Virus record (IMG/VR): IMGVR_UViG_3300001748_000015
Coordinates: 1-32,411 of that record
Length of the DNA stretch: 32,411 nt
Reading direction: 5' to 3' (one strand)
Source of the DNA: a virus
Of the stretch, positions 7,595 to 32,411 are shown in pieces (within the stretch, counting starts at the first letter, position 1; each line of letters begins with the position of its first letter). A model generated the notes under the pieces. That model had not been told where the DNA came from and did not search any database. It saw only the letters and a list, made by a program, of their open reading frames with translations. The position numbers and the translations under genes were made by a program.

Positions 7595-7625
7595 TTGACA
7601 AACGTAACCCAATAAATAGTGTAAC
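7595..7625 (+). promoter_or_regulatory. Candidate promoter with GTnAC-N12-GTnAC element
   Basis: A consensus -35 box TTGACA (7595-7600), a 16-base spacer and TAGTGT (7617-7622) lie just before the tail-fibre gene. Two GTAAC half-sites (7604-7608 and 7621-7625) start 17 bases apart and straddle the -10-like box. The same layout recurs at 22412-22433, 24705-24726 and 32390-32411. A start point predicted about seven bases after TAGTGT falls at the first codons of the gene, so the transcript may be leaderless. No Shine-Dalgarno sequence is seen. Confidence 0.5.
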
Positions 7626-7632
7626 AAACGTG

Positions 7633-9963
7633 ATGAAGATTATGAGGTCTATCAAAGGTATTTCTGTTTTCTTGACGCTGGCAGTCTCTCTGCTTGCGTC
7701 AACCATCGGCGCTCAAGCGCAATTCAGTTCTGGAGCACCGACAAAACTGGTGCTGATCAATTCGTTTAACGACATTGCATCAGTTCAACCAGCGCAAAAC
7801 CAGAATTCCGTAGTGGTTATCCGCTATGGCAACTCGGTTGGCGACCAGCTTGGAGGCATGTTCATGTATGACCCTGATTCCGTGGTTGCTGCGGATAGCA
7901 AGAACGTGTTTGTTCCCGCGTCTGGTTCCGGCAGGTGGGTGCGCTATGACTACGCTGCTTACCTGCCGAAAGTGCAGACAGCTAATCGAGTCATTGTTAC
8001 TGATGGATCAGGCAATGTAGGCACTGACCCACAGCTTACGTTTGATGGCACAGATTTGACGGTTGGCGGTGATCTTACGGTAAGCACTCTCGCGGCTGGC
8101 GGGACAGATACCGTTGTTACCCATAACTCCAACGTGCTTCAGACACGCACGATCAACTCTGATGTGTGGAACCTTGCGGCTGATCTCGCCGGGGATAGTG
8201 AGAATGTTGCTTCGGGAACCAAGTTAGTTGGGCCTGCTATTTATTTTGGCGGCGTCAATGATTATATCGAGGTCGCAGACAGTTCTAAGCTCAGCTTTCA
8301 TACCGCTTCAGGATCATTGCAAGGCGCATGGTCGGCGGCAACTAACACTCCGTTTTTGACTGATGGCACTGGAACGACCGCTCATTACTACACAGTCTCG
8401 GCAGCCGGAACTCAAAACCTGGGAAGCGGAGCAATCACTTATGCGATTGGAGATATCATCAAGTATGACGGCAGCATATGGTATCAGGAAGATAAGGATG
8501 ATTTGGCTTTTAGCATTAGTGCTTGGGTGAAGCCAAGCGACATCACTTCTCTGAACCCGATTGTTAGTAAATACAGTTCGTCAGGTGAGTTTCTGTTCTA
8601 TTTCACCGGCGGCAAGTTAGTGTTTCTGCTTCGGGACGCATCGGTGCAGCCGCTTTTATCAACAGCTGCCCTAACGGTGTCGGTGGATGAATGGTTTCAT
8701 GTTTGCGTGACGTATGCGGGAGCTGGTCCCAACAAGGCAAATGGTTTCGCATCGGCAGCTTCGGGGCTTAAGCTGTTTGTTAATGGCGAGGATCTCACAT
8801 CGGCTGGCACCGTCTCAAACGAGGCTGCTTATTCAGGTATGCCAGACACGACTAATGCGCTACAGATTGGGAGAGCTGGATCGGATTATTACCAGGGCCA
8901 CATCCGAGACGTCAAAATCTTCAACCGCGAACTCACGGCTTCCGAAGTGGCCGAGCTTGCTCGTGGAAATGATTTGGGATTTGCTGATGAGTGGGGTGGT
9001 GCAAATGGAGGAGTAGGCACTATTGACGAAACCGTCGGGCTCTCAAGCTGGAGCGGGTCAGGAAGTGCGACCCCTACAAATCTAACTGAGACTGCTAATA
9101 CTACCGTTGGTGGGCGTCCAAATGTTCTACAGCAACAAGCCACCGCCACGATTGCCACAGCTACAAAAATAGCCATAACAAACGTGGCGAGCGTTGGTAA
9201 ACGTGTCCGAATTGAGTTTGATTATTACATCAACTCGGGAAATGCAACACTTGACACCATCATCGTAGCATCACCAACTGCGACCATCGCCACGCTCAAC
9301 ACCGCAGGTGCATGGACGAGAGCGAGTGTTGAGACAGTTCTTACAAGCACCACGGTAGAGCTACAAATAACAGATGGCGCAACCTACAACGCTACTGCGT
9401 TGGATTTTGTTGGTTTTGATAATTTTAGTGTCACAGAAATCGGCACCCTAGCAGATTTTCGCGCCGAGAACTTTGATGCAGACACCGGAAAGCTATACGA
9501 CTTATCCAGCAATGCTTTCATTGGTGTGAACAGTGGCTCCACGCTCACAGGGCGAGCTTACGCCTTCTATGAAACTGGAACATGGACTCCTGCGATTACA
9601 TTTGGAGGTGGAGCAACTGGCTTAACTTACGGAACTCAGGAAGGTTACTACACTAGGGAAGGAAACCAGGTGACAGTTCATGCCTACATCGTCTTGACAG
9701 CCAAGGGATCTTCCACAGGAACAGCATTAATGACCAGTTTGCCGTTCACGGCACGCAACACTGCTGGCAGCTCTCAGTCTTTGTCGGTGAGCGGCATGAC
9801 CAACGCTGCATCCCTTACGTCTCCAGTCACCGCCTATGTGACCGATAACGGAACCACAGTCAACCTTGTGGACTGGGGTGCGACGGGCGCTGTTGTTCTT
9901 GACGACACCAACTTCACTGACACGTCCACAATCAAGGTCTCTGGCACCTACCAGATTCAGTGA
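7633..9963 (+). CDS. Tail-fibre-like protein with LamG domain and signal peptide
   Basis: Product of 776 residues from the ATG at 7633; a GTG at 7630 is equally possible. The N terminus has basic residues, a hydrophobic core and an AQA cleavage-like site near residue 30, which is a typical Sec signal peptide and unusual for a phage tail protein. Next comes a roughly 70-residue domain (SFNDI, GDQLGGMFMYDP, GSGRWVRYD) shared with the protein at 10606-11253. Residues about 200-445 form a LamG/concanavalin-A-like domain (the YFGGVNDYIEV, SISAWVKP and HIRDVKIFNRELTASEVAEL signatures), a carbohydrate-binding fold. The end, from about 645 (ETGTWTPAITFGG, then GYYTREGNQVTV), matches a C-terminal module common in phage tail appendages. 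Role inferred: receptor binding at the tail tip. It lies directly behind the giant virion gene. An alternative is a cell-surface protein made during infection or lysogeny. Confidence 0.8.
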   Translation: MKIMRSIKGISVFLTLAVSLLASTIGAQAQFSSGAPTKLVLINSFNDIASVQPAQNQNSVVVIRYGNSVGDQLGGMFMYDPDSVVAADSKNVFVPASGSGRWVRYDYAAYLPKVQTANRVIVTDGSGNVGTDPQLTFDGTDLTVGGDLTVSTLAAGGTDTVVTHNSNVLQTRTINSDVWNLAADLAGDSENVASGTKLVGPAIYFGGVNDYIEVADSSKLSFHTASGSLQGAWSAATNTPFLTDGTGTTAHYYTVSAAGTQNLGSGAITYAIGDIIKYDGSIWYQEDKDDLAFSISAWVKPSDITSLNPIVSKYSSSGEFLFYFTGGKLVFLLRDASVQPLLSTAALTVSVDEWFHVCVTYAGAGPNKANGFASAASGLKLFVNGEDLTSAGTVSNEAAYSGMPDTTNALQIGRAGSDYYQGHIRDVKIFNRELTASEVAELARGNDLGFADEWGGANGGVGTIDETVGLSSWSGSGSATPTNLTETANTTVGGRPNVLQQQATATIATATKIAITNVASVGKRVRIEFDYYINSGNATLDTIIVASPTATIATLNTAGAWTRASVETVLTSTTVELQITDGATYNATALDFVGFDNFSVTEIGTLADFRAENFDADTGKLYDLSSNAFIGVNSGSTLTGRAYAFYETGTWTPAITFGGGATGLTYGTQEGYYTREGNQVTVHAYIVLTAKGSSTGTALMTSLPFTARNTAGSSQSLSVSGMTNAASLTSPVTAYVTDNGTTVNLVDWGATGAVVLDDTNFTDTSTIKVSGTYQIQ

Positions 9964-9990
9964 TCCGGATTCACTAAACAGGAACTAATT

Positions 9991-10275
9991 ATGGCAACTA
10001 AACGAGATATCATTCAGGAACACATCACTAGCTACCGCGCTAAGCTTGCAGCTGATAACGGCAAGGCGGACTTGCTTGATGCATTAAGCAACGCTGAGAA
10101 GCGTCTGGAGGCTAAGTCTATCACGGGGCAGTCCATCGATGATGCAACCGCAGTCAGCATTGCGACTGACGCTATCGCCAAGATTAACGCTTACAACTCC
10201 CAGGTTCAGTTGGCGCAGATCGATGTTGCCGCCCTGTCTGCTCAGCTAGCTGAAGCCGATTCCGACCCTGAGTAA
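9991..10275 (+). CDS. Small helical protein, unknown function
   Basis: Product of 94 residues beginning MATKRDIIQEHI. It is rich in Ala, Asp, Gln and Leu and is predicted by eye to be almost wholly helical, with an acidic tail ending ADSDPE. No signal peptide, membrane segment or catalytic motif is visible. A weak AGGAA ribosome site precedes the ATG. It starts 27 bases after the tail-fibre gene and is followed at 20 bases by a lipoprotein gene, so it is probably part of the tail/lysis transcript. It could be a fibre chaperone or an assembly factor, but nothing in the sequence proves this. Confidence 0.7.
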   Translation: MATKRDIIQEHITSYRAKLAADNGKADLLDALSNAEKRLEAKSITGQSIDDATAVSIATDAIAKINAYNSQVQLAQIDVAALSAQLAEADSDPE

Positions 10276-10295
10276 TTAACCATTGACACGACCGC

Positions 10296-10598
10296 ATGCC
10301 ATTAAAGCTCATCACGATACTTATCATGGCGACCGCGATGCTCTCTGGATGCCACATGACCAGGGAGCATCGTCGGCCTGTTGAGGTTGCTGGATCTGTT
10401 GCGTATGAGGAGTTCAAGGTTAAAGTTCCCATCTTCTTTGACTCAAAAGCAGCATCCGTTACAGGTGACCTAAAGGATGGGGACTACTCCTATTCCGTAG
10501 GAGCTAAAGATCTATCCATACTATCTGATGAGCAGTTTGCCGCACAGTTAGCCAAGATTTTTACTGAAGCTGCCAAAGCAGTTTCACCCTTGCCATAA
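10296..10598 (+). CDS. Predicted small outer-membrane lipoprotein
   Basis: Product of 100 residues. The N terminus (MPLKLITILIMATAMLSGC) has a hydrophobic core followed by the lipobox LSGC, so the mature protein would start at Cys19 and be lipidated by the Lgt/LspA pathway. The mature part is about 82 residues, polar, with a short basic stretch after the Cys and no further membrane segment. Small phage lipoproteins near a holin are often outer-membrane spanin subunits, but this one lacks the Pro-rich character usual for those, so a spanin role is only a guess. A superinfection-exclusion lipoprotein is another possibility. It sits 8 bases before a gene for another exported protein. Confidence 0.65.
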   Translation: MPLKLITILIMATAMLSGCHMTREHRRPVEVAGSVAYEEFKVKVPIFFDSKAASVTGDLKDGDYSYSVGAKDLSILSDEQFAAQLAKIFTEAAKAVSPLP

Positions 10599-10605
10599 TT
10601 TTACC

Positions 10606-12283: not shown

Positions 12284-12791
12284 TTACCGTATTGTAACGC
12301 AACAGAATGCGTGACGGAACAGGTAAAAAAAGAGCGTCGTCAGCATTGATCACAACATACTGGCGACTGACTTTATACACGGAATCAAACTTCTCCTGCA
12401 CCCTGGAAGGATCGACGGCACCCACACCGAACTGGACATAGTGGCGAAGGTCACATGAGAACATCATCCATCTAACAGGCTTGCGAAGGGAGGACCATTG
12501 CTCGGCAGGGCATACGAAGATCACTGGATAAGGCCATGACTTCCGGTTCGTGAACTGGGTTCGCTTACTCTTCCACCACTTTACTTCCACACACCCACCA
12601 TCAATCTCAATGTCACCGTTGTCGATGTATTGACCCCTGACCTTGTGGGTAGGTGCAGCACTGGTATGATTAACTCTTGGAGACAGTCCTTCATTCTCAA
12701 GTATCTGAGCGGCCAACCATACAGCTGCCTTGGATTCTTCAAGGCGATCCAGGAATGTTTGATGTGTTTTTGAGTTAATCCACTGGTTCAT
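12270..12791 (-). CDS. PD-(D/E)XK nuclease-like protein
   Basis: Product of 173 residues. The central stretch has the arrangement of a PD-(D/E)XK active site: acidic residues in NGDIEIDGG followed closely by VEVKWW, a candidate E-x-K. Hydrophobic strands follow (PYPVIFVCP). Proteins of this size and fold in phage replication clusters act as Holliday-junction resolvases or short-range nucleases. Its ATG overlaps the stop of the DnaB gene by four bases (ATGA), so the two are translationally coupled, which supports a role in replication or recombination. The family call rests on motif spacing only. A GTnAC-N12-GTnAC element lies inside its 3' end at 12294-12315. Confidence 0.6.
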   Translation of the reverse strand: MNQWINSKTHQTFLDRLEESKAAVWLAAQILENEGLSPRVNHTSAAPTHKVRGQYIDNGDIEIDGGCVEVKWWKSKRTQFTNRKSWPYPVIFVCPAEQWSSLRKPVRWMMFSCDLRHYVQFGVGAVDPSRVQEKFDSVYKVSRQYVVINADDALFLPVPSRILLRYNTVINSF

Positions 12792-14098: not shown

Positions 14099-14099
14099 G

Positions 14100-18060: not shown

Positions 18061-18137
18061 ATTACTGATCGATGCAGGTATTATGCAACCCTAAAAAGGA
18101 AAGGGGGGGGGTGAAAATAAACAACAAAGGAAACGAA

Positions 18138-18413
18138 ATGAAAGAGACAAGCAAAGTAACCAAACAAGAAAAAGAGAAACCGTATGTGACATCATTTCGG
18201 GTGGCCCCCGAGAACTCGTCACTGATCGCCAACGCCAAAGCACTCGGGTTTAATGCGGGTGAGTTCATCAATGAAGCCATCATGATGCATGGCCCTCATT
18301 TATTAAAGAAGCTGAAGACACAATCCAAGCGCAGGATTGAGATGGTTGAATTCATCGAGGCACGCAATAGCGTGGTCAGTAAAGAGATTGAGAAGATGAA
18401 GGCAGCAAAGTGA
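18138..18413 (+). CDS. Small ribbon-helix-helix-like regulator coupled to integrase
   Basis: Product of 91 residues from the ATG at 18138, chosen because AAAGGA (18126-18131) is six bases upstream. A GTG at 18111 and an ATG at 18072 are in frame but read through or next to a run of nine G. After a Lys/Glu-rich N terminus, the core VTSFRVAPENSSLIANAKAL then GFNAGEFINEAIMMHG follows the strand-helix-helix pattern of ribbon-helix-helix proteins, with a basic helical tail. Its stop overlaps the GTG start of integrase 1 by four bases (GTGA), so it may act as an excisionase or as a regulator of integrase expression. The core resembles the divergent 51-residue protein. Confidence 0.7.
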   Translation: MKETSKVTKQEKEKPYVTSFRVAPENSSLIANAKALGFNAGEFINEAIMMHGPHLLKKLKTQSKRRIEMVEFIEARNSVVSKEIEKMKAAK

Positions 18414-19561
18414 GCTATGCCTCACTGGGGCGCAATCTCTACAGGAGAGGTAAGACGTTCTACTTCAGGGATCAATCCAAGCGTCAAAGAGAATGGATAC
18501 GATTACAAGCATCCACAACGAGCGAAGCACGCAGAGAGGTCGCTCAACATGTATCAATCTCAGCATGCCCTCCACAAGAACCAACGGTTCACGATGTCTT
18601 AAAGTTTTACCTCGACCACAATTGCCCCAAGCGTAACGAGCAACCCAGGTCGAGTAGGCAGTTAGACATGGAGATCCAACGGGTTTCCACCCTCTCAAAA
18701 TTCTTCATTCATTACCCATCATCACAAGTTAATCACTCAACTCTACGCGCATACCGCGAATGGAGAGGGCAGACACGTGCATGCGAGCTTGATATCGCCA
18801 CACTTGCTGCCGCATTCAGGTGGGCCTATCGGAACCCCGACATGACAGGGCTTTACGACAACCCAATGCCACATGATAGGCCGAGGTTTGCGAAACCCAA
18901 GACACATTGCAGGGATAGGCAACCATTAAACGCTGATCACTTGCACGCCATTGCTCGATCAATGATGTCAGATCCGCGATCAGGGTGTATGGGTTGGATG
19001 GTTCTGTTTCTTGCGCTCACCGGACTTCGTAGGGACAAGGCCAGGTTCTTTCAGTGGGGAGCGTCCAGCCATAATCCAGGTCACAATGATGGTGAATGCA
19101 TATGGGTTGGAGTGAGCGAGACACACAAGGGAGTGTTCCCGTTCATCCGGTTTCATGATGCACTTTTATTATGGTGGAACGCCTTCGTTGAGTGGCGAAA
19201 ACAGGAGAATCTTGCTAGTCCATGGTATTTCCCTAGCCCAAGGAACCCATCGTTACCCGTCTCAAGGGACGGACTGGGCCAGGCTATGCGTCGAACATGC
19301 AAGCAGCTTGGCATCCGGTCATGCTCACCTCACGGCCTCCGGTCATACTACGTCAACGTGCTCCGGTCCAACGGAGTCATGGATTCTGAGATTGCTTTAC
19401 GCATCGGCCACCGATCTGGAGGGAGATTGATAGTTGATGTTTACGGGGAGGTGCTGCCTCATTCTATTTCATTCATGCCTGACAGTCATCCAGCCTGGAG
19501 TGCTACTGATTGTGCTACTGATTTTCACAGTAAAACGGTGCAGAAAGATTGCGTAACATGA
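18410..19561 (+). CDS. int: Tyrosine recombinase / phage integrase 1
   Basis: Product of 383 residues from a GTG that overlaps the previous stop. An N-terminal arm-binding-like region (about 1-50) and a core-binding domain precede the catalytic domain. Candidate catalytic residues are Arg207 (LTGLRRDKA), Lys240 (SETHKG), His308 and Arg311 (SPHGLRSYY), His334 (IGHRSGG) and Tyr345 (VDVYGEV), so the full set is present. It would join phage and host DNA at a specific site. The gene ends 48 bases before a complete tRNA-Arg gene, a classic integration target, with 12-base tandem repeats inside its own 3' end (19500-19523). Other proteins would be needed for excision; the small coupled regulator is a candidate. 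Confidence 0.92.
   Translation: MSYASLGRNLYRRGKTFYFRDQSKRQREWIRLQASTTSEARREVAQHVSISACPPQEPTVHDVLKFYLDHNCPKRNEQPRSSRQLDMEIQRVSTLSKFFIHYPSSQVNHSTLRAYREWRGQTRACELDIATLAAAFRWAYRNPDMTGLYDNPMPHDRPRFAKPKTHCRDRQPLNADHLHAIARSMMSDPRSGCMGWMVLFLALTGLRRDKARFFQWGASSHNPGHNDGECIWVGVSETHKGVFPFIRFHDALLLWWNAFVEWRKQENLASPWYFPSPRNPSLPVSRDGLGQAMRRTCKQLGIRSCSPHGLRSYYVNVLRSNGVMDSEIALRIGHRSGGRLIVDVYGEVLPHSISFMPDSHPAWSATDCATDFHSKTVQKDCVT
19500..19523. repeat. Tandem 12-base repeat, candidate integrase arm sites (left)
   Basis: Two perfect adjacent copies of GTGCTACTGATT (19500-19511 and 19512-19523) lie in the 3' end of integrase 1. An 11-base copy, TGCTACTGATT, recurs at 19745-19755 on the other side of the tRNA. 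Spaced direct repeats on both sides of a core are the layout of integrase arm-binding sites in an attP. Confidence 0.55.
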
Positions 19562-19566
19562 CGGCT

Positions 19567-19582
19567 CAACTTACGCAAGTTG
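19567..19582. repeat. Small palindrome CAACTT-ACGC-AAGTTG
   Basis: Perfect 6-base arms with a 4-base spacer, six bases after the integrase 1 stop. An 8-base piece of it, ACTTACGC (19569-19576), recurs at 19699-19706, just downstream of the tRNA. No T tract follows, so it is not a typical terminator. It could be a protein-binding site of the attachment region. Confidence 0.4.
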
Positions 19583-19609
19583 TTGATACTGTTTCATCCC
19601 TCCTATGGC

Positions 19610-19686
<77 letters not shown>

Positions 19687-19776: not shown

Positions 19777-21396
19777 CTACCTTTGGTAATCAACCTTGGA
19801 TGGGCTGACTTTACCTTGTGACGGTATGGCGAGCGGGTTGATAGTGGACAGCTTGATCATTGGGTATGTAAGGCTGTCGAACACGTGGAGATGCTTGCAA
19901 CGCTTCGGGTGGAACCGTGCGTCAGGATCGTATTCACCTTTCGGGGATTTGCTTTCAAGGAACATCAACATGTCGATTGTCTTGGGGCATGTTGCAGATA
20001 TGATAATCTCTTCCGATGTCAGCACATCCAGAAGGATGCGGACACGCGACATCACTGACCCCTTGCCCTTCGGTGCTGCCTTCATCCTGATTCTTCCACC
20101 GGATAAATGCTCGACGGTCTGGTGATCTAGGCTTCCGTCCGGCCTTAGCTGGTTGAATGCTGAGTCATCGGATATGTGCTCAAAGTGAAATGAATGTTTA
20201 CATCGCTCGTCCCAGTAATCCATTCGCTTGAGAAGCTGAGGCACAATCCTCGCGTATGAGTAGCGCTTCTCAACAAAGTTAAGCTCATCAAATACCAACC
20301 ACATGTGCCTGTCTGCGCCCACTAAATACTGCATCATGTGGATACTGCTGTGTGCGGGACCAAGGTCATACCCAACCAGGATAGGGAAGTCTGTGGACGG
20401 TAAAAGACCTGTGCCTTTGAGCATGTTTCCCAAGACGTGGATCTCTTTAGAGAATGATGAACCAAAGATCGCTTCACCTGATGGGGCATCAATCCATTCA
20501 CCTCGCAGCATTCGGGCTTCCTCAATCGGGTCACCCTTAACCGCTGCCATGACGTTGTCATAGTATCCGTCCGGTAGGTTCTGAATGTTCTCCTTGATCG
20601 GGAAGAAGTATTCAGCGTAATCATCGTTCCACTCTCCTGTTTCCTCGTCAACAGGATGGATAAAGAAAGTCTTGTATAGCCAGTGACTTGGGCCGTCAGG
20701 GTTGCAACAAAACAAAGCTTGCTGCGGACCTTTGGCAAACGGGTGACGCCCTATCTGTTGGATCAGATACTTGAAGACATCGTTGGTCTTGAAGTTCTGC
20801 GCCTCATCCACCACCGCAAATGATGGTTCGTAACCTTTGACACGTGACTCAATCTTCCCGTCAACAGGCAGAGATATGAACACGATACGGCTATGAGTTC
20901 CGAACCTGTTGGCAACCCACACGAATTGCTTGCGTGTCACTGGGTCCATCTTGGGGACTGAATACTCCAGGCCAACCCCGCACACAACAGATCCATCAGT
21001 GTGCCTTAGTGTCGGACTGCCCTCTGGTGGTGCTCCCCATTCAGGAAGGATCAACTCATTAAGCTTGAACCATGTCCCACCCTCAATAGCTTGGCCTGAT
21101 GTCTGAGTAATGATGACAACAATCGCTCGGTCATTGTTGAACGCATGCTCCACCGCCTCATGCATTGCCCCGATGGACTTGCCGGAACCACGCGGACCAT
21201 GGTAGAGCTTGAACTTGGCACTGCGGTTGCGGTATGCCTTGGCCTGGATAGGTTTGTTTAACCTGGGAGTCCAACCGTCATCAAGCAGTTGGGCAGTGCG
21301 GTCATGATCCTTGAAGTCGGGCGCACTATCGTTCAGCCTTAACTCTTCAAGCAACGCCTCGGTTGCGTGACTTACATTTGACCCAATGTTACCCAC
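19777..21396 (-). CDS. terL: Terminase large subunit
   Basis: Product of 539 residues. The ATPase domain has Walker A GPRGSGKS (67-74) and Walker B AVVDEA (194-199). The C-terminal RNase H-like nuclease has acidic candidates at Asp344 (VGYDLGPAHSS), Asp370 and Asp410/411. It drives DNA into procapsids and cuts the concatemer. The start is the GTG at 21396. It is the last gene of a three-gene leftward packaging unit, with the 98-residue protein three bases upstream and the small-terminase candidate before that. Portal and capsid genes are not in the window and presumably lie upstream of the giant virion gene. Confidence 0.93.
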   Translation of the reverse strand: MGNIGSNVSHATEALLEELRLNDSAPDFKDHDRTAQLLDDGWTPRLNKPIQAKAYRNRSAKFKLYHGPRGSGKSIGAMHEAVEHAFNNDRAIVVIITQTSGQAIEGGTWFKLNELILPEWGAPPEGSPTLRHTDGSVVCGVGLEYSVPKMDPVTRKQFVWVANRFGTHSRIVFISLPVDGKIESRVKGYEPSFAVVDEAQNFKTNDVFKYLIQQIGRHPFAKGPQQALFCCNPDGPSHWLYKTFFIHPVDEETGEWNDDYAEYFFPIKENIQNLPDGYYDNVMAAVKGDPIEEARMLRGEWIDAPSGEAIFGSSFSKEIHVLGNMLKGTGLLPSTDFPILVGYDLGPAHSSIHMMQYLVGADRHMWLVFDELNFVEKRYSYARIVPQLLKRMDYWDERCKHSFHFEHISDDSAFNQLRPDGSLDHQTVEHLSGGRIRMKAAPKGKGSVMSRVRILLDVLTSEEIIISATCPKTIDMLMFLESKSPKGEYDPDARFHPKRCKHLHVFDSLTYPMIKLSTINPLAIPSQGKVSPSKVDYQR

Positions 21397-21399: not shown

Positions 21400-21696
21400 T
21401 TATTGATTAACACCCTCAAGCGGAAACTCGCCGCCATCATGGTTGCTTTTTTTTGTAAGAATGCCAGACGCAATGGACTCCATGATTTTATCAAGTGTCT
21501 TCTGGCAGTCAGAAAGCATGGACTTTAGAGCGATGATCTCGACTGGGCTTTGGTGGACGTTGACAACCAGCATGGGCATGCCTGTCTCCGCATCGAAGCC
21601 TACAGCGGCGAACGTGTCGAGATGTTCGGAGAGTATAGCTCGCACCGTCTCACCTGTTTGCTGGAAATAATTACCTTGGTTTGGATTGATCATCAT
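21400..21696 (-). CDS. Unknown protein between terminase genes
   Basis: Product of 98 residues beginning MMINPNQGNYFQQTGETVRA. It has a small strand region (FAAVGFDAETGMPMLVVNVHQ) followed by a long helix (EIIALKSMLSDCQKTLDKIMESI) that could form a coiled coil. No family is recognised. Its start overlaps the stop of the small-terminase candidate by four bases (ATGA), and terL starts three bases after its stop, so all three are probably co-translated and it may be a packaging accessory. A run of eight A near the end of the gene encodes KK. Confidence 0.75.
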   Translation of the reverse strand: MMINPNQGNYFQQTGETVRAILSEHLDTFAAVGFDAETGMPMLVVNVHQSPVEIIALKSMLSDCQKTLDKIMESIASGILTKKSNHDGGEFPLEGVNQ

Positions 21697-22400
21697 GTCT
21701 TGTTGCTCCTGCCTTTCTTCTTGCGATCAGCTTGTTTCACCACTGCCTGAACCAGTGCGGACTTGTGGATCACCTCGTTGACGCGAACAGTAGTCTCTTT
21801 GTTTTGCGCCATGATCCGGTGAATCCTCTCAATCTCACCGAGTATCGCAGCACGTTGCGCTGATCCGACTGGAGCCTCTTCAGCCTTGTTCTCCAGCTCT
21901 TTGACCGCCATCTCAAACGCAGGTTTAAGCTGCTCCGACTCCTTGATGTTAGACAGGAAGGTATGAACCAAACCTCCATGCATCAGCTGCAACCCTGACT
22001 TGAAGTGGTTGTCAGCCATGGAGTGCAGTTCTTTGGCGATGTTCACAACGGAATCATCCCAACCGAGTCGGGTAAGCGAGGAAGCGAACTGCTCGTTTTC
22101 CTCCTTCATCTTCTGAACCATTGCTGCCTGTTCCGTGATATCCAGGTCGCCAGTTGGATGAATAAACACAGGCTCACCGTCACCTACGAACTCTGACTTC
22201 CGATGGATGGTGTCCGTGTCGTTAGGAATATCCCCGGCAGACTGCTTGCCCCACCTGGTATTCAGTTGGTCGCATCCCTCAATGGTTCGCTTAAGCTTTT
22301 TAGAGGGCCACCCCATAAGGACAGCGGCGCCAGCCGTATGGCCATTGCATTCCTCCATGGCTTTGTGAATGTTCTTGATTTGTTCGTCCGTGAGTGCCAT
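21693..22400 (-). CDS. Terminase small subunit candidate
   Basis: Product of 235 residues. The N terminus (EQIKNIHKAMEECNGHTAGAAVLMGWPSKKLKRTIEGC, about 5-42) reads as a helix-turn-helix of the kind small terminases use to bind pac or cos DNA. The middle and C-terminal parts are long helices (ELHSMADNHFKSGLQLM, EMAVKELENKAEEA) fitting oligomerisation, and the tail is basic (KKKGRSNKT). It is the first gene of the packaging unit that contains terL. No ribosome site precedes the ATG; the GTnAC-type promoter element ends 11 bases upstream, so the transcript may be almost leaderless. The name rests on position and helix-turn-helix pattern. Confidence 0.65.
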   Translation of the reverse strand: MALTDEQIKNIHKAMEECNGHTAGAAVLMGWPSKKLKRTIEGCDQLNTRWGKQSAGDIPNDTDTIHRKSEFVGDGEPVFIHPTGDLDITEQAAMVQKMKEENEQFASSLTRLGWDDSVVNIAKELHSMADNHFKSGLQLMHGGLVHTFLSNIKESEQLKPAFEMAVKELENKAEEAPVGSAQRAAILGEIERIHRIMAQNKETTVRVNEVIHKSALVQAVVKQADRKKKGRSNKT

Positions 22401-22411
22401 AGTTTCTGAAT

Positions 22412-22443
22412 GTTACACTATGTGTTGCGTCACATTCTGGCAA
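22412..22443 (-). promoter_or_regulatory. Candidate promoter with GTnAC-N12-GTnAC element, packaging unit
   Basis: On the minus strand: TTGCCA (22443-22438), 17 bases, TAGTGT (22420-22415). GTnAC half-sites are GTGAC (22433-22429) and GTAAC (22416-22412), starting 17 bases apart. It matches the element before the tail-fibre gene in -35, -10 and half-site layout. The predicted start point is about eight bases before the ATG at 22400. Confidence 0.55.
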
Positions 22444-22496
22444 TAAGAATCTTCGGTTTCAAGCTGATAAGATTTGTTGAGTTTGGGAAGGTGTTC

Positions 22497-22787
22497 GTGT
22501 CTGAAGTTGGTCCTGCCGCTTGGCCTAATCGCGCATGGATCATTGGGAAGATAGTCGTCGCCTTGCTTCGAGCAAAGCGTCAACCAAAAGAAGTGTATCA
22601 AAGAAGGCTGATGGGAGGGTGCCGTAACTGCGTGATCTACAACAGGCAGACCAAGCAATGCGGATCAAGTGATGAGGATAAGTTGGGGTGTGGCTGTTAC
22701 ATGCCATTCAAGGCAGCACTGGCCGATACCCCTGAAGATGGGTGTTGGTTTGAGCGGGAAACAGGAACCAAGATGTGGTCACAGTGA
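22497..22787 (+). CDS. Small Cys-rich protein, probable zinc binder
   Basis: Product of 96 residues from the GTG at 22497, with a GGGAAGG run (22484-22490) six bases upstream; an in-frame ATG at 22410 would add 29 hydrophobic residues and overlap the divergent promoter element. The core is VYQRRLMGGCRNC, then NRQTKQCG, then LGCGCYMPFKAAL, six Cys in C-x2-C...C...C-x-C spacing with another in DGCWFERE, so a zinc-binding fold is likely. Similar small Cys-rich proteins are found in many phages without assigned function. It is the only rightward gene between two leftward blocks and its end overlaps the end of convergent integrase 2 by nine bases. Confidence 0.6.
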   Translation: MSEVGPAAWPNRAWIIGKIVVALLRAKRQPKEVYQRRLMGGCRNCVIYNRQTKQCGSSDEDKLGCGCYMPFKAALADTPEDGCWFERETGTKMWSQ

Positions 22788-23849
22788 TTGGATCGCTTCC
22801 TTGAGGTAGTGCCTCCGCGTCGTGGACTCCAGCAAGTGGCCCATCAGTGCGGAGATATGCGGATACTGAACGCCTTTCTTTAGGCACTCATTAGCAAACG
22901 TGTGGCGCAATCCGTGGAAGGTTCGCCCAAAGATATCCACCTTAGCGCACAACCTGCTGAACTGAACGGATGTTTTGCTTCGTATCTTTGGGTCAACTGC
23001 GTCCATCGCTCTCGTTGGCCAAAAGAAATTCTCCGTGTAAGGCAACCAAAGGATTGCTTCCTTGAGCTTGGCGTTCGCAATCGGGATCTCCACTCTTGTT
23101 TCGCGCTTGTCCGTCCAGATGGTTAGATAACCAGGCTTCATGAGTGACTCCTGTTTAAGCTGGCAGATATCACCGAGGCGTAGTCCAGCGTATCGGGCAA
23201 GGATGATGGCGCAGAACCAGAAGGAGTCTTTATCCTTCATGTCATCAGGGTGGGTGAGCGCGAGTAGCGCACTGATTTGCTTGTCGTCAAACAGTTGGAT
23301 CTCTTTCTTCTCCTTCTGCGCGTGCGATAGGTTCCCTTTGGTGACTCGTGCCAGCTTTGCAGGATTGCCCATGATGTAGCCGCGAGCACTCAAGAACCCT
23401 GTGAAGTTCATGATGCATGCACGTAGGAACTTGCGGTTATTGTAAGATCCTTTGTCTTCTCCATTGATCCATTCCGACACGTGCTCACTGTTTAGTTGCG
23501 AACATTTCAGATCTTGGATACCCACCTCAGACATCCACCTGTCCACCCGCCCGACGTAGTTACTTCGCGTTAGCTCTGACTCGGTTCCGCTCTGGCTGAG
23601 CCACCGATCCCACTCTTCCCGCGCCTCAGTCAGTGATAATCCTTTCTTGCCAAGGATTGCTTTGTCGAATACCTCAGCGGATATCCTGCCAACCTTTGCA
23701 GCAGCCTCGATCTCCTCAATGTTTGATTGCTTCGCTACCTTCAGTGCCTCCTGGCGGTTGCGTGTCTTGGTTGAGACTTTGCGCCTCTTCCCGTTCCGAT
23801 CCACATACCTGATGTGATATACCCCGCTCGGGGCTTTCGTTAAGTCCAT
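22779..23849 (-). CDS. Tyrosine recombinase / integrase 2
   Basis: Product of 356 residues. The start is well supported by GGAGG seven bases before the ATG. An N-terminal arm-type domain (GVYHIRYVDRNGKRRKVSTK) resembles the beta-sheet DNA-binding domain of phage integrases. Catalytic candidates are Arg224 (AGLRLGD), Lys248 (TDKRE), His312 and Arg315 (FHGLRHTF), His338 (MGHLL) and Tyr348 (RRHYLKEA), a complete set. The sequence is clearly different from integrase 1. Two intact tyrosine recombinases in one phage may act at different sites, in dimer resolution, or be the result of module exchange. Its 5' end overlaps the preceding gene by 134 bases. Confidence 0.92.
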   Translation of the reverse strand: MDLTKAPSGVYHIRYVDRNGKRRKVSTKTRNRQEALKVAKQSNIEEIEAAAKVGRISAEVFDKAILGKKGLSLTEAREEWDRWLSQSGTESELTRSNYVGRVDRWMSEVGIQDLKCSQLNSEHVSEWINGEDKGSYNNRKFLRACIMNFTGFLSARGYIMGNPAKLARVTKGNLSHAQKEKKEIQLFDDKQISALLALTHPDDMKDKDSFWFCAIILARYAGLRLGDICQLKQESLMKPGYLTIWTDKRETRVEIPIANAKLKEAILWLPYTENFFWPTRAMDAVDPKIRSKTSVQFSRLCAKVDIFGRTFHGLRHTFANECLKKGVQYPHISALMGHLLESTTRRHYLKEAIQSL

Positions 23850-24423
23850 GTTCTATCCTCCATTTCTCTGCCAGACGATGCTTCACGTTCTCAATCGCCT
23901 GATATTTGACCTTTGTTTCCAGACTTTCCAGCTGCTTCCTTATGTAGCTGTGATCCACTTGGGAGGTTCGTATCTTGGATGCTTCATGCACCTCTTTACG
24001 GAACGCTTCCCACTTTTCTTTATTTGATTCTTGTTTAACTTTGTTCTGATTCTTCCGAATGCCAGACATCTTCTCGGTGAACATGCCTGTTGCGATGGAT
24101 ATCTCCACGATCCTGCGCCGGGTCCATGTATCTTCCCGAACTTTAGCCAACCGGATAGCCTCCGCTTTACTGACCTGATTCTTATCCAGGTGACGAAGCT
24201 CTGCAATGTCATGCCGCTTCTTAAGTAACCTGCGATACTCCCTGATGACCTGCTTCCAGAACTCAGACGGAGTAATGAACAGAGGAATATCATCCCCGAT
24301 CTGGTTAATCGTCGTGACGTGCGCACCCCGCTTGCGCGGCACAGACTTTACTGGCCTCGGTCGCTTGATGACAGGCTTTTGATTAGCGTCATCCCCTCCG
24401 GGCTCTCCCGCACGTATCTCCAT
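23716..24423 (-). CDS. Unknown basic, helical protein
   Basis: Product of 235 residues from the ATG at 24423, with AGAGGAAAG just upstream (an ATG at 24441 is the alternative). It opens with a basic, Pro-rich segment (KPVIKRPRPVKSVPRKRG). A middle region FITPSEFWKQVIREYRRLLKKRHDIAEL and later KVREDTWTRRRIVEIS are helical and strongly charged. The C-terminal half has KYQAIENVKHRLAEKW followed by a low-complexity tail that overlaps integrase 2. I recognise no family; the charge suggests nucleic-acid binding. It overlaps both neighbours (76 and 134 bases) on the same strand, so expression is tightly coupled. Confidence 0.65.
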   Translation of the reverse strand: MEIRAGEPGGDDANQKPVIKRPRPVKSVPRKRGAHVTTINQIGDDIPLFITPSEFWKQVIREYRRLLKKRHDIAELRHLDKNQVSKAEAIRLAKVREDTWTRRRIVEISIATGMFTEKMSGIRKNQNKVKQESNKEKWEAFRKEVHEASKIRTSQVDHSYIRKQLESLETKVKYQAIENVKHRLAEKWRIEHGLNESPERGISHQVCGSEREEAQSLNQDTQPPGGTEGSEAIKH

Positions 24424-24701
24424 TTGTCTTTCCTCTTGCATGCAATCAACCGTGTGTGCTGCCTCATCCGAAGTCGGTCACAGAAATCCACATCACACCC
24501 TTTTAGGTAGGCGAACATGGTGTCAAACGGAACACCATCCCATGTCCTGCGAGTGGCCAGCGCCGACACCATCAGCAAGTCCAAGCCTGACCGCTTGGCT
24601 ATCTGCTCAACAGTGTAGAGCACTGGCCGTTTGCTTCTCGTCCGCGCCAACAACCGACAGGTTGCTGGACTAAATCTCTTTGCCTTCTTCCAGAAGTTCA
24701 T
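24348..24701 (-). CDS. Putative helix-turn-helix protein, integrase 2 unit
   Basis: Product of 117 residues. YTVEQIAKRSGLDLLMVSALATRRTWDGVP reads as a helix-turn-helix in which AKRSGLD is the turn, followed by FDTMFAYLKGCDVDF. The N terminus is basic. This may be a DNA-binding regulator or excisionase-like factor for the integrase 2 unit, which it heads. The ATG is three bases from the GTnAC-N12-GTnAC element (24705-24726) and has no ribosome site, so the mRNA may be leaderless. The last 76 bases overlap the next gene. Confidence 0.6.
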   Translation of the reverse strand: MNFWKKAKRFSPATCRLLARTRSKRPVLYTVEQIAKRSGLDLLMVSALATRRTWDGVPFDTMFAYLKGCDVDFCDRLRMRQHTRLIACKRKDKWRYVRESPEGMTLIKSLSSSDRGQ

Positions 24702-24704: not shown

Positions 24705-24726
24705 GTCACAATACCCATAGTGTTAC
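24705..24726. promoter_or_regulatory. GTnAC-N12-GTnAC element before integrase 2 unit
   Basis: GTCAC (24705-24709) and GTTAC (24722-24726) start 17 bases apart; TAGTGT on the plus strand at 24718-24723 matches the box in the other copies. Here the TAGTGT orientation is opposite to the gene at 24701, so a protein-binding (operator) role is more likely than a core promoter. A short palindrome, TTGAC-N6-GTCAA on the minus strand, lies just upstream, and TTGACT in it could be a -35 box for the leftward gene. Confidence 0.45.
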
Positions 24727-29107: not shown

Positions 29108-30481
29108 TTACTTGTTGCATTGCTCCAGGATCTTGCGAATGTCCGACTGCTCCAGCCCCTTCCAGAGCAGCATGGACTCAACCTCTTGCCGCGCAATCCC
29201 TGCATTAAGCAACCTGCACCCATAGATGGTTGCTCTCGGGGATACCACGTGGCGAATGCCAAGTTGATCGACTGCTTTTCGGATGTTGGTCACACCAAGC
29301 AACCACTCTTCCGCATCGCAATCGGTTGCAGCATCAGCTTGCCACTTGAATTCAGGGCTATCTTTCTTCAGCCCGACCAGCGATGCCTCCAAACCCTCAT
29401 CGACAGGCCACTCGATGAATGCGAACCGATCAAGTGTTGCAGCATCCAAGTGATTGCGCCCAACGTAATGGCGGTTACCGCCAACGCCGAACGTGTTGGC
29501 AGCAGCAATAAACCTGAAGTCTTTATGTCGCTCAAACGTCCCGCCCGGAGTTACGATCTTGCCGTTGCTCATAAGCAGGTTGATCATTGTCAACACGCCA
29601 GGGTGAGCAGCATCGATCTCATCCATCAGGAACAGCTTGCCGTCACGGTATGCCCTTACCAACCCCGTCTCATGGTAGTTACCATTGGCATCCTTGAACC
29701 CAAACAGGTCACCCTTGGATGTTTGAGGGCCGACGCTCATGATCTCGTAGTCCAAACTCAAAGCCTTGGCCACATTGATTGCCGCTGTTGACTTACCAGT
29801 TCCAGCGGGTCCAACAAGGAACGCAGGAACATCATTGGCCGCTACTTGAAGGAGCATTCCGAACTTGTAATGGTTCCTGCCTTCCAGTTCCTTGGTTTCA
29901 GTGGGAGTCTTAATGACAACAACCTCACGTGGAGGTATGCTTGCAATGTAGTCATCCACTTTCTTGCGGAGGATACGTTGCTCTTCCTTGAAGATCTTAT
30001 CAACGGACTCATGCACATGGCCCTCATTCGGTGACAAATCCGACACACGTTCCTCAACCAGCGGGATCACCGCCTCAAGGATCATGTCCGTCAGCCTGTC
30101 ACCAGTGGATGCAATCTTCTTGGTTGCTTTGGGTTTCTTCGTTTCCGGTTTGGGCTCACTTGCAGGTTCCGTGTCCTGTTCAGGTTCGCTTTGTTCCTCC
30201 GGCGCATCATCAGGCTTAATCTCACCGCTCACGTCGAAGTCACCGAGCAGCGACTTGTTGCCGAGCTTGATCGCCTCAATCAATCGGTCAGCGCATTCAT
30301 CCTTCTGCTCCAAGGTGGTGCCGCTGGACATGAAATGCATCAGGTTGGATGCGTTGTATGTGTCCATGACGAATGCGTTGGCGTGCTTCATCCAGTCAGG
30401 ATGCTTTTGGAGGAACGCGAGTGCTGCTTGCAGTTTCTTTGTGACTTTCTTAGAGTCAAGAGCGATAGTTTCAGTAGTCAT
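29108..30481 (-). CDS. MoxR/CobS-like AAA+ ATPase
   Basis: Product of 457 residues. The N-terminal half is helical with an acidic, Pro/Glu-rich linker (about 88-125). The AAA+ domain has Walker A GPAGTGKS (224-231), Walker B LFLMDEID (283-290), sensor-1 AANT (327-330) and an arginine finger in LDAATLDRF (Arg352); ETGLVRAYRDG before the Walker B matches the MoxR/CobS/MCM-like clade. Such ATPases remodel proteins, usually together with a von Willebrand factor A (VWA) partner; no VWA gene is visible in the window. It is followed closely by the 303-residue gene and the methyltransferase-helicase. Confidence 0.88.
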   Translation of the reverse strand: MTTETIALDSKKVTKKLQAALAFLQKHPDWMKHANAFVMDTYNASNLMHFMSSGTTLEQKDECADRLIEAIKLGNKSLLGDFDVSGEIKPDDAPEEQSEPEQDTEPASEPKPETKKPKATKKIASTGDRLTDMILEAVIPLVEERVSDLSPNEGHVHESVDKIFKEEQRILRKKVDDYIASIPPREVVVIKTPTETKELEGRNHYKFGMLLQVAANDVPAFLVGPAGTGKSTAAINVAKALSLDYEIMSVGPQTSKGDLFGFKDANGNYHETGLVRAYRDGKLFLMDEIDAAHPGVLTMINLLMSNGKIVTPGGTFERHKDFRFIAAANTFGVGGNRHYVGRNHLDAATLDRFAFIEWPVDEGLEASLVGLKKDSPEFKWQADAATDCDAEEWLLGVTNIRKAVDQLGIRHVVSPRATIYGCRLLNAGIARQEVESMLLWKGLEQSDIRKILEQCNK

Positions 30482-30492
30482 AATAGTTTTAA

Positions 30493-30903
30493 TTAAAGGT
30501 TTTCGAGTTGAGCCATCAGTTCCGCAAGGTCCTGGCTATAAGATTCATCTTGATTGTCGTTTTCTCCAGAAGTAACGCCACCATTAGCGTTACCTTTACC
30601 GCCCCGGAAGAACGGGATCGGCTTGTTACAGGCATGCCCCCAATAACCAACCTTGTCGGTGCCAGGTATAGGGTGACCATCCTTTTTCTTGGTAGCACGA
30701 AACCCGAGGGCGAACAGCTTCTTGGGAGTCTCTGCGCCATACTCTTTCTTCGGGACTTTAGTCGTGATCCACAACCATGACCTGTCCGCTTCAGTTTGAG
30801 CTGCTAAGGGTGGGCTCAGTTCCTCAAGCTTCTTTAAGCATTCCTCAATAGACATGCGTGGACGAGGTGATTTCTTTCGCTTGGTTTCCTCTGTTTTATT
30901 CAT
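30493..30903 (-). CDS. Small protein with a WLW...GFR module
   Basis: Product of 136 residues. A basic N terminus (KTEETKRKKSPRPRM) precedes a helix (SIEECLKKLEEL). The core SWLWITTKV, then KKLFALGFRATKKKDG, then KVGYWGHA resembles a short module with the pattern W-L-W-x(n)-K-x-L-x2-x-G-F-R-x3-K-K-x(n)-W found in phage and plasmid accessory proteins of unknown function. The C terminus is Asn/Asp/Gln-rich. The ATG has a double GAAAGGAAAGGAAAG upstream. It heads the group MoxR-like ATPase / 303-residue protein / methyltransferase-helicase. Confidence 0.65.
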   Translation of the reverse strand: MNKTEETKRKKSPRPRMSIEECLKKLEELSPPLAAQTEADRSWLWITTKVPKKEYGAETPKKLFALGFRATKKKDGHPIPGTDKVGYWGHACNKPIPFFRGGKGNANGGVTSGENDNQDESYSQDLAELMAQLENL

Positions 30904-30928
30904 AACTTTCCTTTCCTTTCATTGTTAA

Positions 30929-31213
30929 TCAAAGACCTAAGCACAGCCCGATACCAGCCATCATCCCATACCCTATAAGGAACAGAATGAAACCAGCACC
31001 GAACGCTTTCAGCATCATGACCCCGGTTATTTTTGGTGGAGCTTCATGCGGATGCATTGGACACCAAGGACGAAAGGTTCCGTGTCCCTCCAATCCAGTT
31101 CCAGCAGTCTTGAATATCTGTTGACACGACTTTGTCTTACACGCGCCACTCTCGGGTGGGATCGCGTTGTTTCTTTGAGGTGAACGAATGGCTTGTCTTT
31201 CATTAGCTTTCAT
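30929..31213 (-). CDS. Small membrane protein
   Basis: Product of 94 residues. The N-terminal two thirds are polar, with Cys and His (CKTKSCQQ, WCPMHPHE) that could bind a metal; the C terminus is a single hydrophobic segment (KAFGAGFILFLIGYGMMAG, about 69-93) likely to span the inner membrane. No clear ribosome site precedes the ATG. A tail-anchored accessory protein is likely; I cannot assign a function. Confidence 0.55.
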   Translation of the reverse strand: MKANERQAIRSPQRNNAIPPESGACKTKSCQQIFKTAGTGLEGHGTFRPWCPMHPHEAPPKITGVMMLKAFGAGFILFLIGYGMMAGIGLCLGL

Positions 31214-31249
31214 TTCATTTGTTTGGTTTATATTTGTGTGTGGTGGGTG

Positions 31250-31933
31250 TTAATACTCTCGCACGGGCATGATTGCCCCTATGTATCCTTTACCGGAGAA
31301 TACGATTGGCTCACCATGCCCGACGTAAGCAAACCTTGGTGAAGGGAGATGAAGAATGTCGTAAAGCAGGTATGACTTAACCGGCGCACCAACTTCTTGG
31401 TCAGGAACTCGCATGCTCTCAGTCAGGAACTCACAGACTTCCTTAGATCCATCGCAAGTATTGCACGTCACCCAAACTTTAGGTGTTACTGGAACAGAGC
31501 CGCTTCCAGAGCATTCCTTGCACCCCGTATCAGAGCCACAGCACTCACACTCCACCTCTCCAATCCCTTCGCATTGCGGGCAGTCCATTAGCTTCGGAAC
31601 CTTCCCATCCTTATTGCATATTGGACATCGGTTCACCACCCTCTCGATACAGCCAGGATCAATGGTGAATAGTTCAGTTTCCTGCATGGCACTAAGAGGG
31701 TGGATGATGCTGCCCTTAATAAGGTTACACACAGACTTCAGGAATTCCTTAGTCAGTGTTGATCTGTGGTTACTATCGGTTTGAGGGTATTCATACTCCA
31801 CCGCAACCAATCGCCTGCCATCGGTCGCAACAGTGTAGCCGTCTAGTATTGTGAACGGCTTCATTAAGTGTGGTCTCCAATCAGCTTCACAGAACTTTAT
31901 AAGAGTTTCCCACGGGATAGGCGGCTTACTCAT
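31250..31933 (-). CDS. Protein with DnaJ-type zinc-finger insert
   Basis: Product of 227 residues. The ATG has AAGGAGG (31938-31944) close upstream. The N-terminal domain includes DGYTVATDGRRLVAVEYEYP. In the middle, Cys pairs follow each other in the DnaJ central-domain style: CPIC, CPQCEGIG, CECCG, CKECSGSG and CNTCDG, giving two zinc sites. The C-terminal domain (KSYLLYDILHLPSPRFAYVG, then IVFSGKGYIGAIMPV) is beta-rich. The zinc module appears inserted between the two halves of another domain. There is no J-domain, so it is not a DnaJ co-chaperone. The ATDGRRL segment recalls sliding-clamp-like sequences, but this is weak. Function unknown. Confidence 0.7.
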   Translation of the reverse strand: MSKPPIPWETLIKFCEADWRPHLMKPFTILDGYTVATDGRRLVAVEYEYPQTDSNHRSTLTKEFLKSVCNLIKGSIIHPLSAMQETELFTIDPGCIERVVNRCPICNKDGKVPKLMDCPQCEGIGEVECECCGSDTGCKECSGSGSVPVTPKVWVTCNTCDGSKEVCEFLTESMRVPDQEVGAPVKSYLLYDILHLPSPRFAYVGHGEPIVFSGKGYIGAIMPVREY

Positions 31934-31937
31934 GCTG

Positions 31938-31944
31938 CCTCCTT
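31938..31944 (-). promoter_or_regulatory. Strong ribosome binding site of the zinc-finger-insert gene
   Basis: AAGGAGG on the minus strand, four bases before the ATG at 31933; the AT-rich 90 bases upstream probably hold the promoter, but I see no convincing -35/-10 pair. Confidence 0.6.
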
Positions 31945-32039
31945 ATGCTCTGGTTTGATGTTTAATGTTGTTGTGAGTTTCATTGCTTTGATATGTGATT
32001 AGGTTAATAAAAAGTAATACAAATATTATTTAATGCAAC

Positions 32040-32067
32040 AAAAAAAGACCAGTGGTTAGCTGGTCTT
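32040..32067 (-). terminator. Rho-independent terminator after the 92-residue gene
   Basis: The 8-base arms AAGACCAG and CTGGTCTT (32045-32052 and 32060-32067) with a 7-base loop are followed on the minus strand by a run of at least five U (the A run from 32040). It lies 12 bases after the stop codon at 32079 and separates this gene from the next leftward unit. Confidence 0.85.
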
Positions 32068-32078
32068 GAATCAATGCG

Positions 32079-32357
32079 TCATGCAACCTCTTGAAGAATC
32101 TTCATCAACTCCTGTTTTACCATTCCGCGAACATTTACCTGTGGATCAGGCATAACAGATGGTTGCTTGCGTTCTGGCTTCCTTTTCGTTGGGCTCTTTC
32201 GTGTTGCTTTCCGGTAACTGAGGCGGCTTACGGTATCCATCAGGGATTCATAAGCTCTCTCAAGTTGTAATGCCTGGTCATCCATTGTGTCGGCCAGGTT
32301 ATTTGCTGCTGCGAACAGTTTTCTCTGTGTTTTGGTTGAAAACCCATGCAATCGCAT
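32079..32357 (-). CDS. Small basic protein, unknown
   Basis: Product of 92 residues. The helical N-terminal half (KTQRKLFAAANNLADTMDDQ) is followed by a very basic segment (YRKATRKSPTKRKPERKQP) and a short helical end. It could bind nucleic acid. No ribosome site is seen. Its ATG is part of a 12-base inverted repeat (32346-32384), and a GTnAC-N12-GTnAC element lies 32 bases further upstream, so expression is probably controlled both at the promoter and at the start codon. It is a monocistronic unit ending in a strong terminator. Confidence 0.65.
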   Translation of the reverse strand: MRLHGFSTKTQRKLFAAANNLADTMDDQALQLERAYESLMDTVSRLSYRKATRKSPTKRKPERKQPSVMPDPQVNVRGMVKQELMKILQEVA

Positions 32358-32384
32358 ACATCACAGAGATACATGCGATTGCAT
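32346..32384 (-). repeat. 12-base inverted repeat across the start codon
   Basis: ATGCAATCGCAT (32346-32357) and ATGCGATTGCAT (32373-32384) are perfect complements with 15 bases between. The start codon of the 92-residue gene is the first three bases of the downstream arm in the mRNA. It could be an operator or an RNA hairpin that hides the start codon. Confidence 0.65.
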
Positions 32385-32389
32385 AAGGT

Positions 32390-32411
32390 GTGACGCTATG
32401 TGTTGGGTGAC
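32390..32411 (-). promoter_or_regulatory. GTnAC-N12-GTnAC element at window edge
   Basis: On the minus strand GTCAC (32411-32407), 12 bases containing CCAACACA and TAGC, then GTCAC (32394-32390); the box TAGCGT is at 32398-32393. It matches the elements at 7604 and 22412. Any -35 box lies outside the window. Confidence 0.5.

What the first reader, a model, noticed from the sequence alone, without database searches (positions are those of the whole stretch)
7595..32411. Recurrent GTnAC-N12-GTnAC element with TAGTGT box at four transcription starts
Two GTnAC half-sites starting exactly 17 bases apart occur at 7604-7625 (+), 22412-22433 (-), 24705-24726 and 32390-32411 (-). Each is just upstream of a gene (tail fibre, small terminase, integrase 2 unit, 92-residue protein). 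Three copies share the pattern GTnAC, CCAAYAMA-like, TAGYGT, AAC or CAC; two have a TTGnCA box 16-17 bases upstream of TAGTGT. Seen in sequence: spacing and placement. Inferred: a phage regulator, or a modified sigma-70 promoter class, controls packaging, tail and integrase genes together.
Basis: partly seen in the sequence, partly recalled or inferred. Interest (0 to 1): 0.75.

Follow-up and report, generated by a model that had tools for sequence, protein, structure and literature searches.

The report
Late-gene operator of marine phages
A 22-base, roughly mirror-symmetric DNA signal sits right in front of the start codons of the shell, tail, packaging, lysis and integrase genes in this virus and in dozens of distant, never-cultured relatives, so it is almost certainly the docking site of a regulator that switches those genes together.

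Summary
A 69-kb record of the same phage has 9. The element is conserved in an uncultured, apparently marine phage group whose terminases are only 40-51% identical to the window's: up to 17 copies per 80-kb genome, before orthologous genes (capsid, gene after the terminase, integrase, tail, holin-like). In ten genomes 63 of 82 copies lie outside genes, mostly 0-13 bp before a start codon. It reads as a dyad operator (GTnACAC..GTGTnAC) whose inner bases change by clade; one sister clade has a centre-aligned TGAnCTA..TAGnTCA version. It is not a hairpin. A TTGAC -35 box is enriched upstream, so the element covers the -10/start region of near-leaderless promoters. Best reading: operator of a phage regulator, probably a repressor, for a late-plus-integrase regulon. 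The regulator is not identified: a recombinase-fold protein (SroF/MrpR-like) co-occurs with the element but is absent from the window's phage and does not track element type; a 117-aa HTH-like protein sits directly behind one element here.

The parts
7604..7625 (+). element copy GTAACCCAATAAATAGTGTAAC, 4 bp before the GTG (7 bp before the ATG) of the 777-aa tail-fibre-like gene 7630-9963
   Evidence: gene product matches PHROG minor tail protein and Pfam Laminin_G_3
7595..7600 (+). TTGACA, putative -35; 16 bp before TAGTGT 7617-7622
   Evidence: read; TTGAC enrichment upstream of elements
   Evidence: that ORF has a homologue in L036
22412..22433 (-). element copy GTGACGCAACACATAGTGTAAC, 11 bp before the TerS-like gene 21693-22400 (-); a small Cys-rich ORF on the + strand (22410-22787) also begins over it
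   Evidence: homologues of the Cys-rich ORF
22438..22443 (-). TTGCCA, putative -35; 17 bp before TAGTGT 22420-22415
   Evidence: read
24705..24726 (-). element copy, in gene direction GTAACACTATGGGTATTGTGAC, 3 bp before the 117-aa gene (unit 117 aa - 241 aa - integrase)
24348..24701 (-). 117-aa HTH-like protein directly behind the element; family conserved near the terminase throughout the phage group
   Evidence: predicted fold resembles XRE/C-protein controllers, weak (best VIA Z 5.6, C.Esp1396I)
22779..23849 (-). 356-aa tyrosine integrase; orthologues in relatives have the element 1-8 bp before their start
32390..32411 (-). element copy GTCACCCAACACATAGCGTCAC, 32 bp before the 92-aa ORF 32079-32357; also the last 22 bases of the contig
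21693..22400 (-). TerS-like gene (235 aa) behind the element; packaging unit with TerL 19777-21396
   Evidence: the TerS call rests on position next to TerL

Best explanation
The element is a double-stranded DNA operator: a 22-bp near-palindrome with half-sites GTnACRC / GYGTnAC, read by a dimeric phage-encoded regulator. It lies over the -10 / transcription-start / start-codon region of the promoters for late virion, packaging and lysis genes and for the integrase. Binding there most likely blocks RNA polymerase, so that the lytic late genes and the integrase are held off together, in a lysogen or early in infection, and released together. Transcripts from these promoters probably start at or within a few bases of the start codon. 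Shown: the sequence, its enrichment, its conserved position before orthologous genes, its dyad character and its clade-specific variants. Inferred: dimeric binding, repression rather than activation, and near-leaderless transcripts. Not identified: the protein.
For: Enrichment: 6 against 0.26 expected in the window; 9 against 0.8 in the 69-kb record; 88 against about 10 per other spacing in 0.97 Mb of relatives; up to 17 per genome with 0-3 in the reversed-pattern control. A de novo dyad scan puts GT-n-AC with gap 12 first in G001, G004, G011, G015, G026 and G024 (intergenic DNA only). Placement: 63 of 82 outside genes while 68-92% of 22-mers lie inside genes; other gaps 35 outside / 111 inside. 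Most of the 50 oriented sites have the start codon within 13 bp. Orthologous placement before the major capsid protein, the gene after TerL and the integrase, and before the capsid gene in many loci. Positions 3 and 20 are not complementary (19 against 25 expected), so no hairpin is maintained. TTGAC in the 30 bp upstream: 19 against 1.3 expected; TTGAC to ATG mostly 34-40 bp, where a sigma-70 start would fall. Only 6 of 62 have a Shine-Dalgarno-like string in the scanned stretch. A sister clade carries TGAnCTA-N6-TAGnTCA, aligned on the same centre, before the same capsid gene.
Against: No binding or transcription data exist. Only 23 of 62 sites have TTGAC in the 30 bp upstream, so many promoters may need an activator. 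A quarter of the copies are inside genes, which a pure promoter operator does not explain (roadblock-type sites possible). The window's phage lacks the one candidate regulator that co-occurs with the element elsewhere.
Confidence: 0.55

Rival explanations
1. Late promoter or activator site: the element is read by a phage sigma-like factor, phage RNA polymerase or late activator that switches virion genes on.
For: The downstream genes are nearly all late-type (capsid, tail, holin-like, terminase) plus the integrase. The element replaces the usual -10 region, and a -35-like TTGAC is missing from 39 of 62 sites.
Against: The spacing to TTGAC varies; the element is a dyad with no fixed second box; no single-subunit RNA polymerase motif set was seen in the long proteins by a crude pattern search; the integrase is an odd member of a late-activated set; activators normally bind upstream of -35 (general knowledge).
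Confidence: 0.27
2. On the identity of the binder (compatible with the best explanation): the regulator is the roughly 335-aa tyrosine-recombinase-fold protein encoded beside the terminase, a master repressor of the SPbeta MrpR / phi3T SroF type.
For: In 30 of 37 loci long enough to hold its position the gene is present, nearly all with an element; of 7 without it, 5 lack the element. Its HxxR histidine is N or D, as in MrpR N254 (PMC10516654). The predicted model matches SroF (Z 11.2) and MrpR 8A0A (Z 10.2) among recombinases.
Against: No homologue in the window's 69-kb record. Its sequence clusters do not follow element type: L090 and L087 share the TGACC-type element while their proteins are only distantly related (different clusters); L039 and L053 share the GTnACAC type at about 40% identity. 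Active recombinases (XerA, lambda Int) match at least as well as SroF/MrpR. Co-occurrence is confounded with phylogeny.
Confidence: 0.3
3. On the identity of the binder (compatible with the best explanation): the regulator is the 117-aa HTH-like protein whose gene lies directly behind the element at 24705 in the window (autoregulated XRE/C-protein type).
For: Homologues sit just upstream of TerL throughout the group and follow the core lineage as the element type does; weak structural match to C.Esp1396I, Z 5.6; the element is 3 bp before its gene in the window.
Against: Equally present in relatives without the element, for example L002, L099, L100. Its putative recognition helix varies among phages that share one element type. 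No element lies directly before it in the relatives listed.
Confidence: 0.2
4. An RNA-level or structural signal (leader hairpin, N4-type hairpin promoter, tyrosine-recombinase attachment site).
For: The arms are inverted repeats with an 8-base centre; two integrases are present.
Against: Positions 3 and 20 do not pair; up to 17 copies per genome, in front of unrelated genes; positional constraint is to start codons, not to one attachment locus.
Confidence: 0.05

Closest known systems
SPbeta repeated element (SPBRE) bound by MrpR (YopR); phi3T SroF
   Same: One short operator repeated about ten times in promoter regions of a temperate phage and bound by a tyrosine-recombinase-fold repressor (PMC10516654); a protein of that fold accompanies the element in most of this group.
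   Different: SPBRE is a 15-bp motif in a Bacillus phage; here a 22-bp dyad abuts start codons of late and integrase genes in an uncultured group; the window's phage lacks the candidate protein.
Mycobacteriophage L5 stoperators (from general knowledge)
   Same: Many copies of one repressor site spread over a phage genome, some inside genes.
   Different: Stoperators are 13-bp asymmetric sites; here a dyad placed over start codons.
P2 Ogr / P4 Delta late activation sites, T4 late promoters (from general knowledge)
   Same: One signal shared by the late genes.
   Different: Ogr sites lie near -55; T4 late promoters are an octamer without dyad; here a dyad lies over -10 to the start codon.
Proteins reading GTnAC: Borrelia EbfC, Acinetobacter UmuDAb operator core
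   Same: GTnAC is the recognised core (PMC8581549, PMC11332147).
   Different: A single GTnAC core, not two at a fixed 17-bp spacing; no link to phage late genes.

Membership tests
Distributed repressor operator of the SPBRE/MrpR type | Many copies of one motif in promoter regions of the phage genome | tested here: met
Distributed repressor operator of the SPBRE/MrpR type | Bound by a tyrosine-recombinase-fold protein that lost recombinase residues | tested here: inconclusive
   A protein of that fold co-occurs in relatives but does not track element type; binding cannot be tested here
Distributed repressor operator of the SPBRE/MrpR type | Such a protein encoded by the window's own phage | tested here: not met
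   No hit of the family HMM in the 69-kb record beyond the 356-aa integrase at E 0.21; by eye both tyrosine recombinases of the window keep R, K, HxxR and Y. The record may be incomplete
Sigma-70-type promoter class | -35 TTGACA and a -10 box at 17 +/- 1 bp | tested here: inconclusive
   Two window sites fit; TTGAC enriched 19 against 1.3 expected, but absent from 39 of 62 sites and at variable distance
N4-type hairpin promoter / RNA hairpin | Complementary arms maintained across copies | tested here: not met
   N3/N20 complementary in 19 of 63 against 25 expected
Tyrosine-recombinase attachment site | One or a few copies at the integration locus | tested here: not met
   5-17 copies in the longer genomes, before unrelated genes
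P2 Ogr-type late activation site | Site about 55 bp upstream of the transcription start | tested here: inconclusive
   The element ends 0-13 bp before most start codons, which argues against it, but no transcription start has been mapped

The most novel reading that the evidence does not exclude
A whole group of uncultured, probably temperate marine phages runs its late genes and integrase as one regulon through an operator that replaces the promoter -10 region and abuts the start codon, giving near-leaderless late messages, under a repressor descended from a tyrosine recombinase whose target sequence has shifted by clade.
Probability: 0.2. Interest if true: 0.7.

Novelty: new variant of a known kind. 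Interest (0 to 1): 0.52.

Why it matters
It gives a readable regulatory code for a phage group known only from metagenomes: late genes, and probably the lysogeny decision, can be predicted from sequence. It offers a sharp test of whether recombinase-fold repressors of the MrpR/SroF type exist outside Bacillus phages. The operator sitting over start codons with almost no leader is an uncommon late-gene arrangement that can be tested by expressing the candidate proteins in a laboratory strain.

Tried and rejected
A chance repeat: rejected. RNA or N4-type hairpin: rejected by non-pairing of N3/N20. Virion RNA polymerase in the giant protein: only scattered, non-diagnostic motif matches in a crude regular-expression search; not pursued. 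The tyrosine-recombinase-fold protein as the proven binder: I favoured it after the co-occurrence result and the structure match, then lowered it when its clusters did not follow element type. A hidden element in the element-less relatives G022 and G002: none found by PWM or dyad scan. Conservation of intragenic copies beyond protein constraint: suggestive at a tail gene, contradicted by L096 at the DnaB-region site; left open. Host: the GTDB scan returned only three contigs of one 'uncultured archaeon' MAG, which I read as phage contigs binned together, so the host is unknown. Extending the contig past its end: no other record. Close relatives of the window's phage by capsid gene and by either recombinase: none. 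Literature for a GTnAC-pair phage operator: nothing fitting.

Full report
Observation. GTnAC-N12-GTnAC occurs six times in the window against 0.26 expected from shuffles. Two more, 12294-12315 and 30572-30593, lie inside reading frames. The -35-like boxes are real: TTGACA-N16-TAGTGT at 7595-7622 and TTGCCA-N17-TAGTGT on the minus strand at 22443-22415.

Whole phage. The window is bases 36876-69286 of a 69,286-bp record, IMGVR_UViG_3300005512_000020, called G001 here. That record has nine copies. Among GTnAC pairs the start spacing 17 occurs nine times, against 0.8 in simulations with a maximum of 3; the next best spacing has 5. The copies precede the 546-aa capsid-family gene (d = 5 bp), the 777-aa tail-fibre-like gene (4), the TerS-like gene (11), the 117-aa/241-aa/integrase unit (3) and the 92-aa ORF (32). 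Four are intragenic. The capsid assignment is by clustering with the 624-aa family found in all genomes next to portal-like genes; it rests on synteny and conservation, not on a named domain. The TerS assignment likewise rests on position next to TerL.

Relatives. TerL of the window has no annotated-phage relative above about 23% identity. A profile search of viral contigs gave 80 loci, the window's own phage among them, the others with TerL 39-51% identical. I take many of them to be marine from the metagenome studies; I did not verify the sources. In 0.97 Mb of these loci the pattern occurs 88 times against about 10 for an average other gap, and gap 12 is the peak in most loci that hold it. 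Long records hold up to 17 copies with 0-3 in the reversed-pattern control. A de novo scan for spaced dyads puts GT-n-AC with gap 12 first in six genomes and at 10^-18 in the intergenic DNA of G004. Tandem arrays of three or four GTnAC at 17-bp period occur in L025, L030 and L084.

Placement. With a simple ORF caller, 63 of 82 copies in ten genomes lie outside genes, although 68-92% of 22-mers lie inside; for other gaps the split is 111 inside, 35 outside. Fifty copies can be oriented to a downstream gene; most end 0-13 bp before the start codon, commonly 0-4. The same genes carry it across genomes: capsid protein, the acidic gene after TerL, integrase, tail/fibre-like proteins, a holin-like 154-aa protein (named by eye). 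It is not in front of the DnaB or SNF2-helicase genes examined.

Shape. In gene direction the consensus in the main clade is GTAACACGAANNNNNNTGTAAC, with four fixed positions in each half and a dyad GTnACAC..GTGTnAC. Other clades read GTnACCyAA..TTrGGTnAC, GTnACTA..TAGTnAC and, in the window's phage, GTnACGC..GYGTnAC. A sister clade (G030, L087, L089, L090 and others) lacks GTnAC pairs but has TGAnCTA-N6-TAGnTCA aligned on the same centre at the same place before the capsid gene, five times in G030. The free bases 3 and 20 do not pair (19 of 63 complementary, 25 expected), so a hairpin is not maintained.

Promoter context. TTGAC is found 19 times in the 30 bp upstream of 50 sites against 1.3 expected, mostly at -9 to -14 from the element. 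TTGAC to ATG is mostly 34-40 bp, about where a sigma-70 transcript would start, so these look like near-leaderless promoters whose -10 falls inside the element. Only 6 of 62 show a Shine-Dalgarno-like string. The TTGAC box is absent from 39 of 62. The -10 box itself was not scored statistically.

Regulator. Candidate 1 is a roughly 335-aa protein at the head of the TerS/TerL unit in most element-bearing phages. Profile and predicted structure place it in the tyrosine recombinases; the HxxR histidine is N or D while R, K, R, H and Y remain. MrpR, the SPbeta master repressor, has N at that position and the same fold (PMC10516654), and phi3T SroF is among the matches. Among 37 loci long enough to hold it, 30 have it, nearly all with elements; of the seven without it, five lack the element, one has a single chance-like copy, and one is the window's phage. 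Against it: no homologue in G001, and its clusters do not follow element type. Candidate 2 is the 117-aa protein behind the element at 24705. Its family sits upstream of TerL throughout the group and its predicted fold weakly resembles XRE/C-protein controllers, but it is also present where the element is absent. I leave the binder open.

Judgement. The element is real, conserved and regulatory. Operator of a phage repressor over late and integrase promoters is the most likely reading (0.55); late activator or promoter signal is the main rival (0.27). The two rivals about the binder's identity are sub-hypotheses, not alternatives to the operator reading. The kind (a repeated phage operator) is known; the arrangement over start codons of a late-plus-integrase regulon in this uncultured group, with clade-shifted half-sites, I did not find described in the searches made, which cover open-access papers only.

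Noticed in passing
window 18410-19686: A second tyrosine recombinase (383 aa, catalytic residues apparently complete) is followed by an intact tRNA-Arg(ACG) gene at 19610-19686, a likely attachment locus; the phage therefore has two integrase-type genes.
   Followed up: partly
window 18072-18413: A 113-aa protein just upstream of the 383-aa recombinase looks by eye like a ribbon-helix-helix protein; no Pfam match.
   Followed up: no
window 32346-32384: A perfect 12-bp inverted repeat (ATGCAATCGCAT / ATGCGATTGCAT, 15-bp spacer) lies between the last element and the 92-aa ORF and covers its start codon.
   Followed up: no
window 32411 = G001 69286: Both contigs end at the same base, the last base of an element; no record extends past it. 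Shared reads or a real end cannot be told apart.
   Followed up: partly
window 49-7593 (G001 36444-44468): Giant virion-type protein of 2,674 aa; relatives in the group reach 5,699 aa, with conserved N- and C-terminal parts.
   Followed up: partly
window 22410-22787 (+): Small Cys-rich protein with homologues in several relatives; its ORF begins over the TerS element, so one element may serve two divergent genes.
   Followed up: partly
L103 14007-15011 and orthologues: The recombinase-fold gene is preceded by its own short direct repeats (for example TTTGTCAACAGTTTTGTCAACATG in G013 and G014), possibly an autoregulatory site.
   Followed up: no
L141, L142, L143: Three different phage contigs of this group sit in one GTDB genome labelled 'uncultured archaeon' (CALIKS01), probably a binning artefact.
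   Followed up: no
G022, G030: PWM matches to the element are absent from these relatives, fewer than in base-shuffled controls, a hint of avoidance.
   Followed up: no
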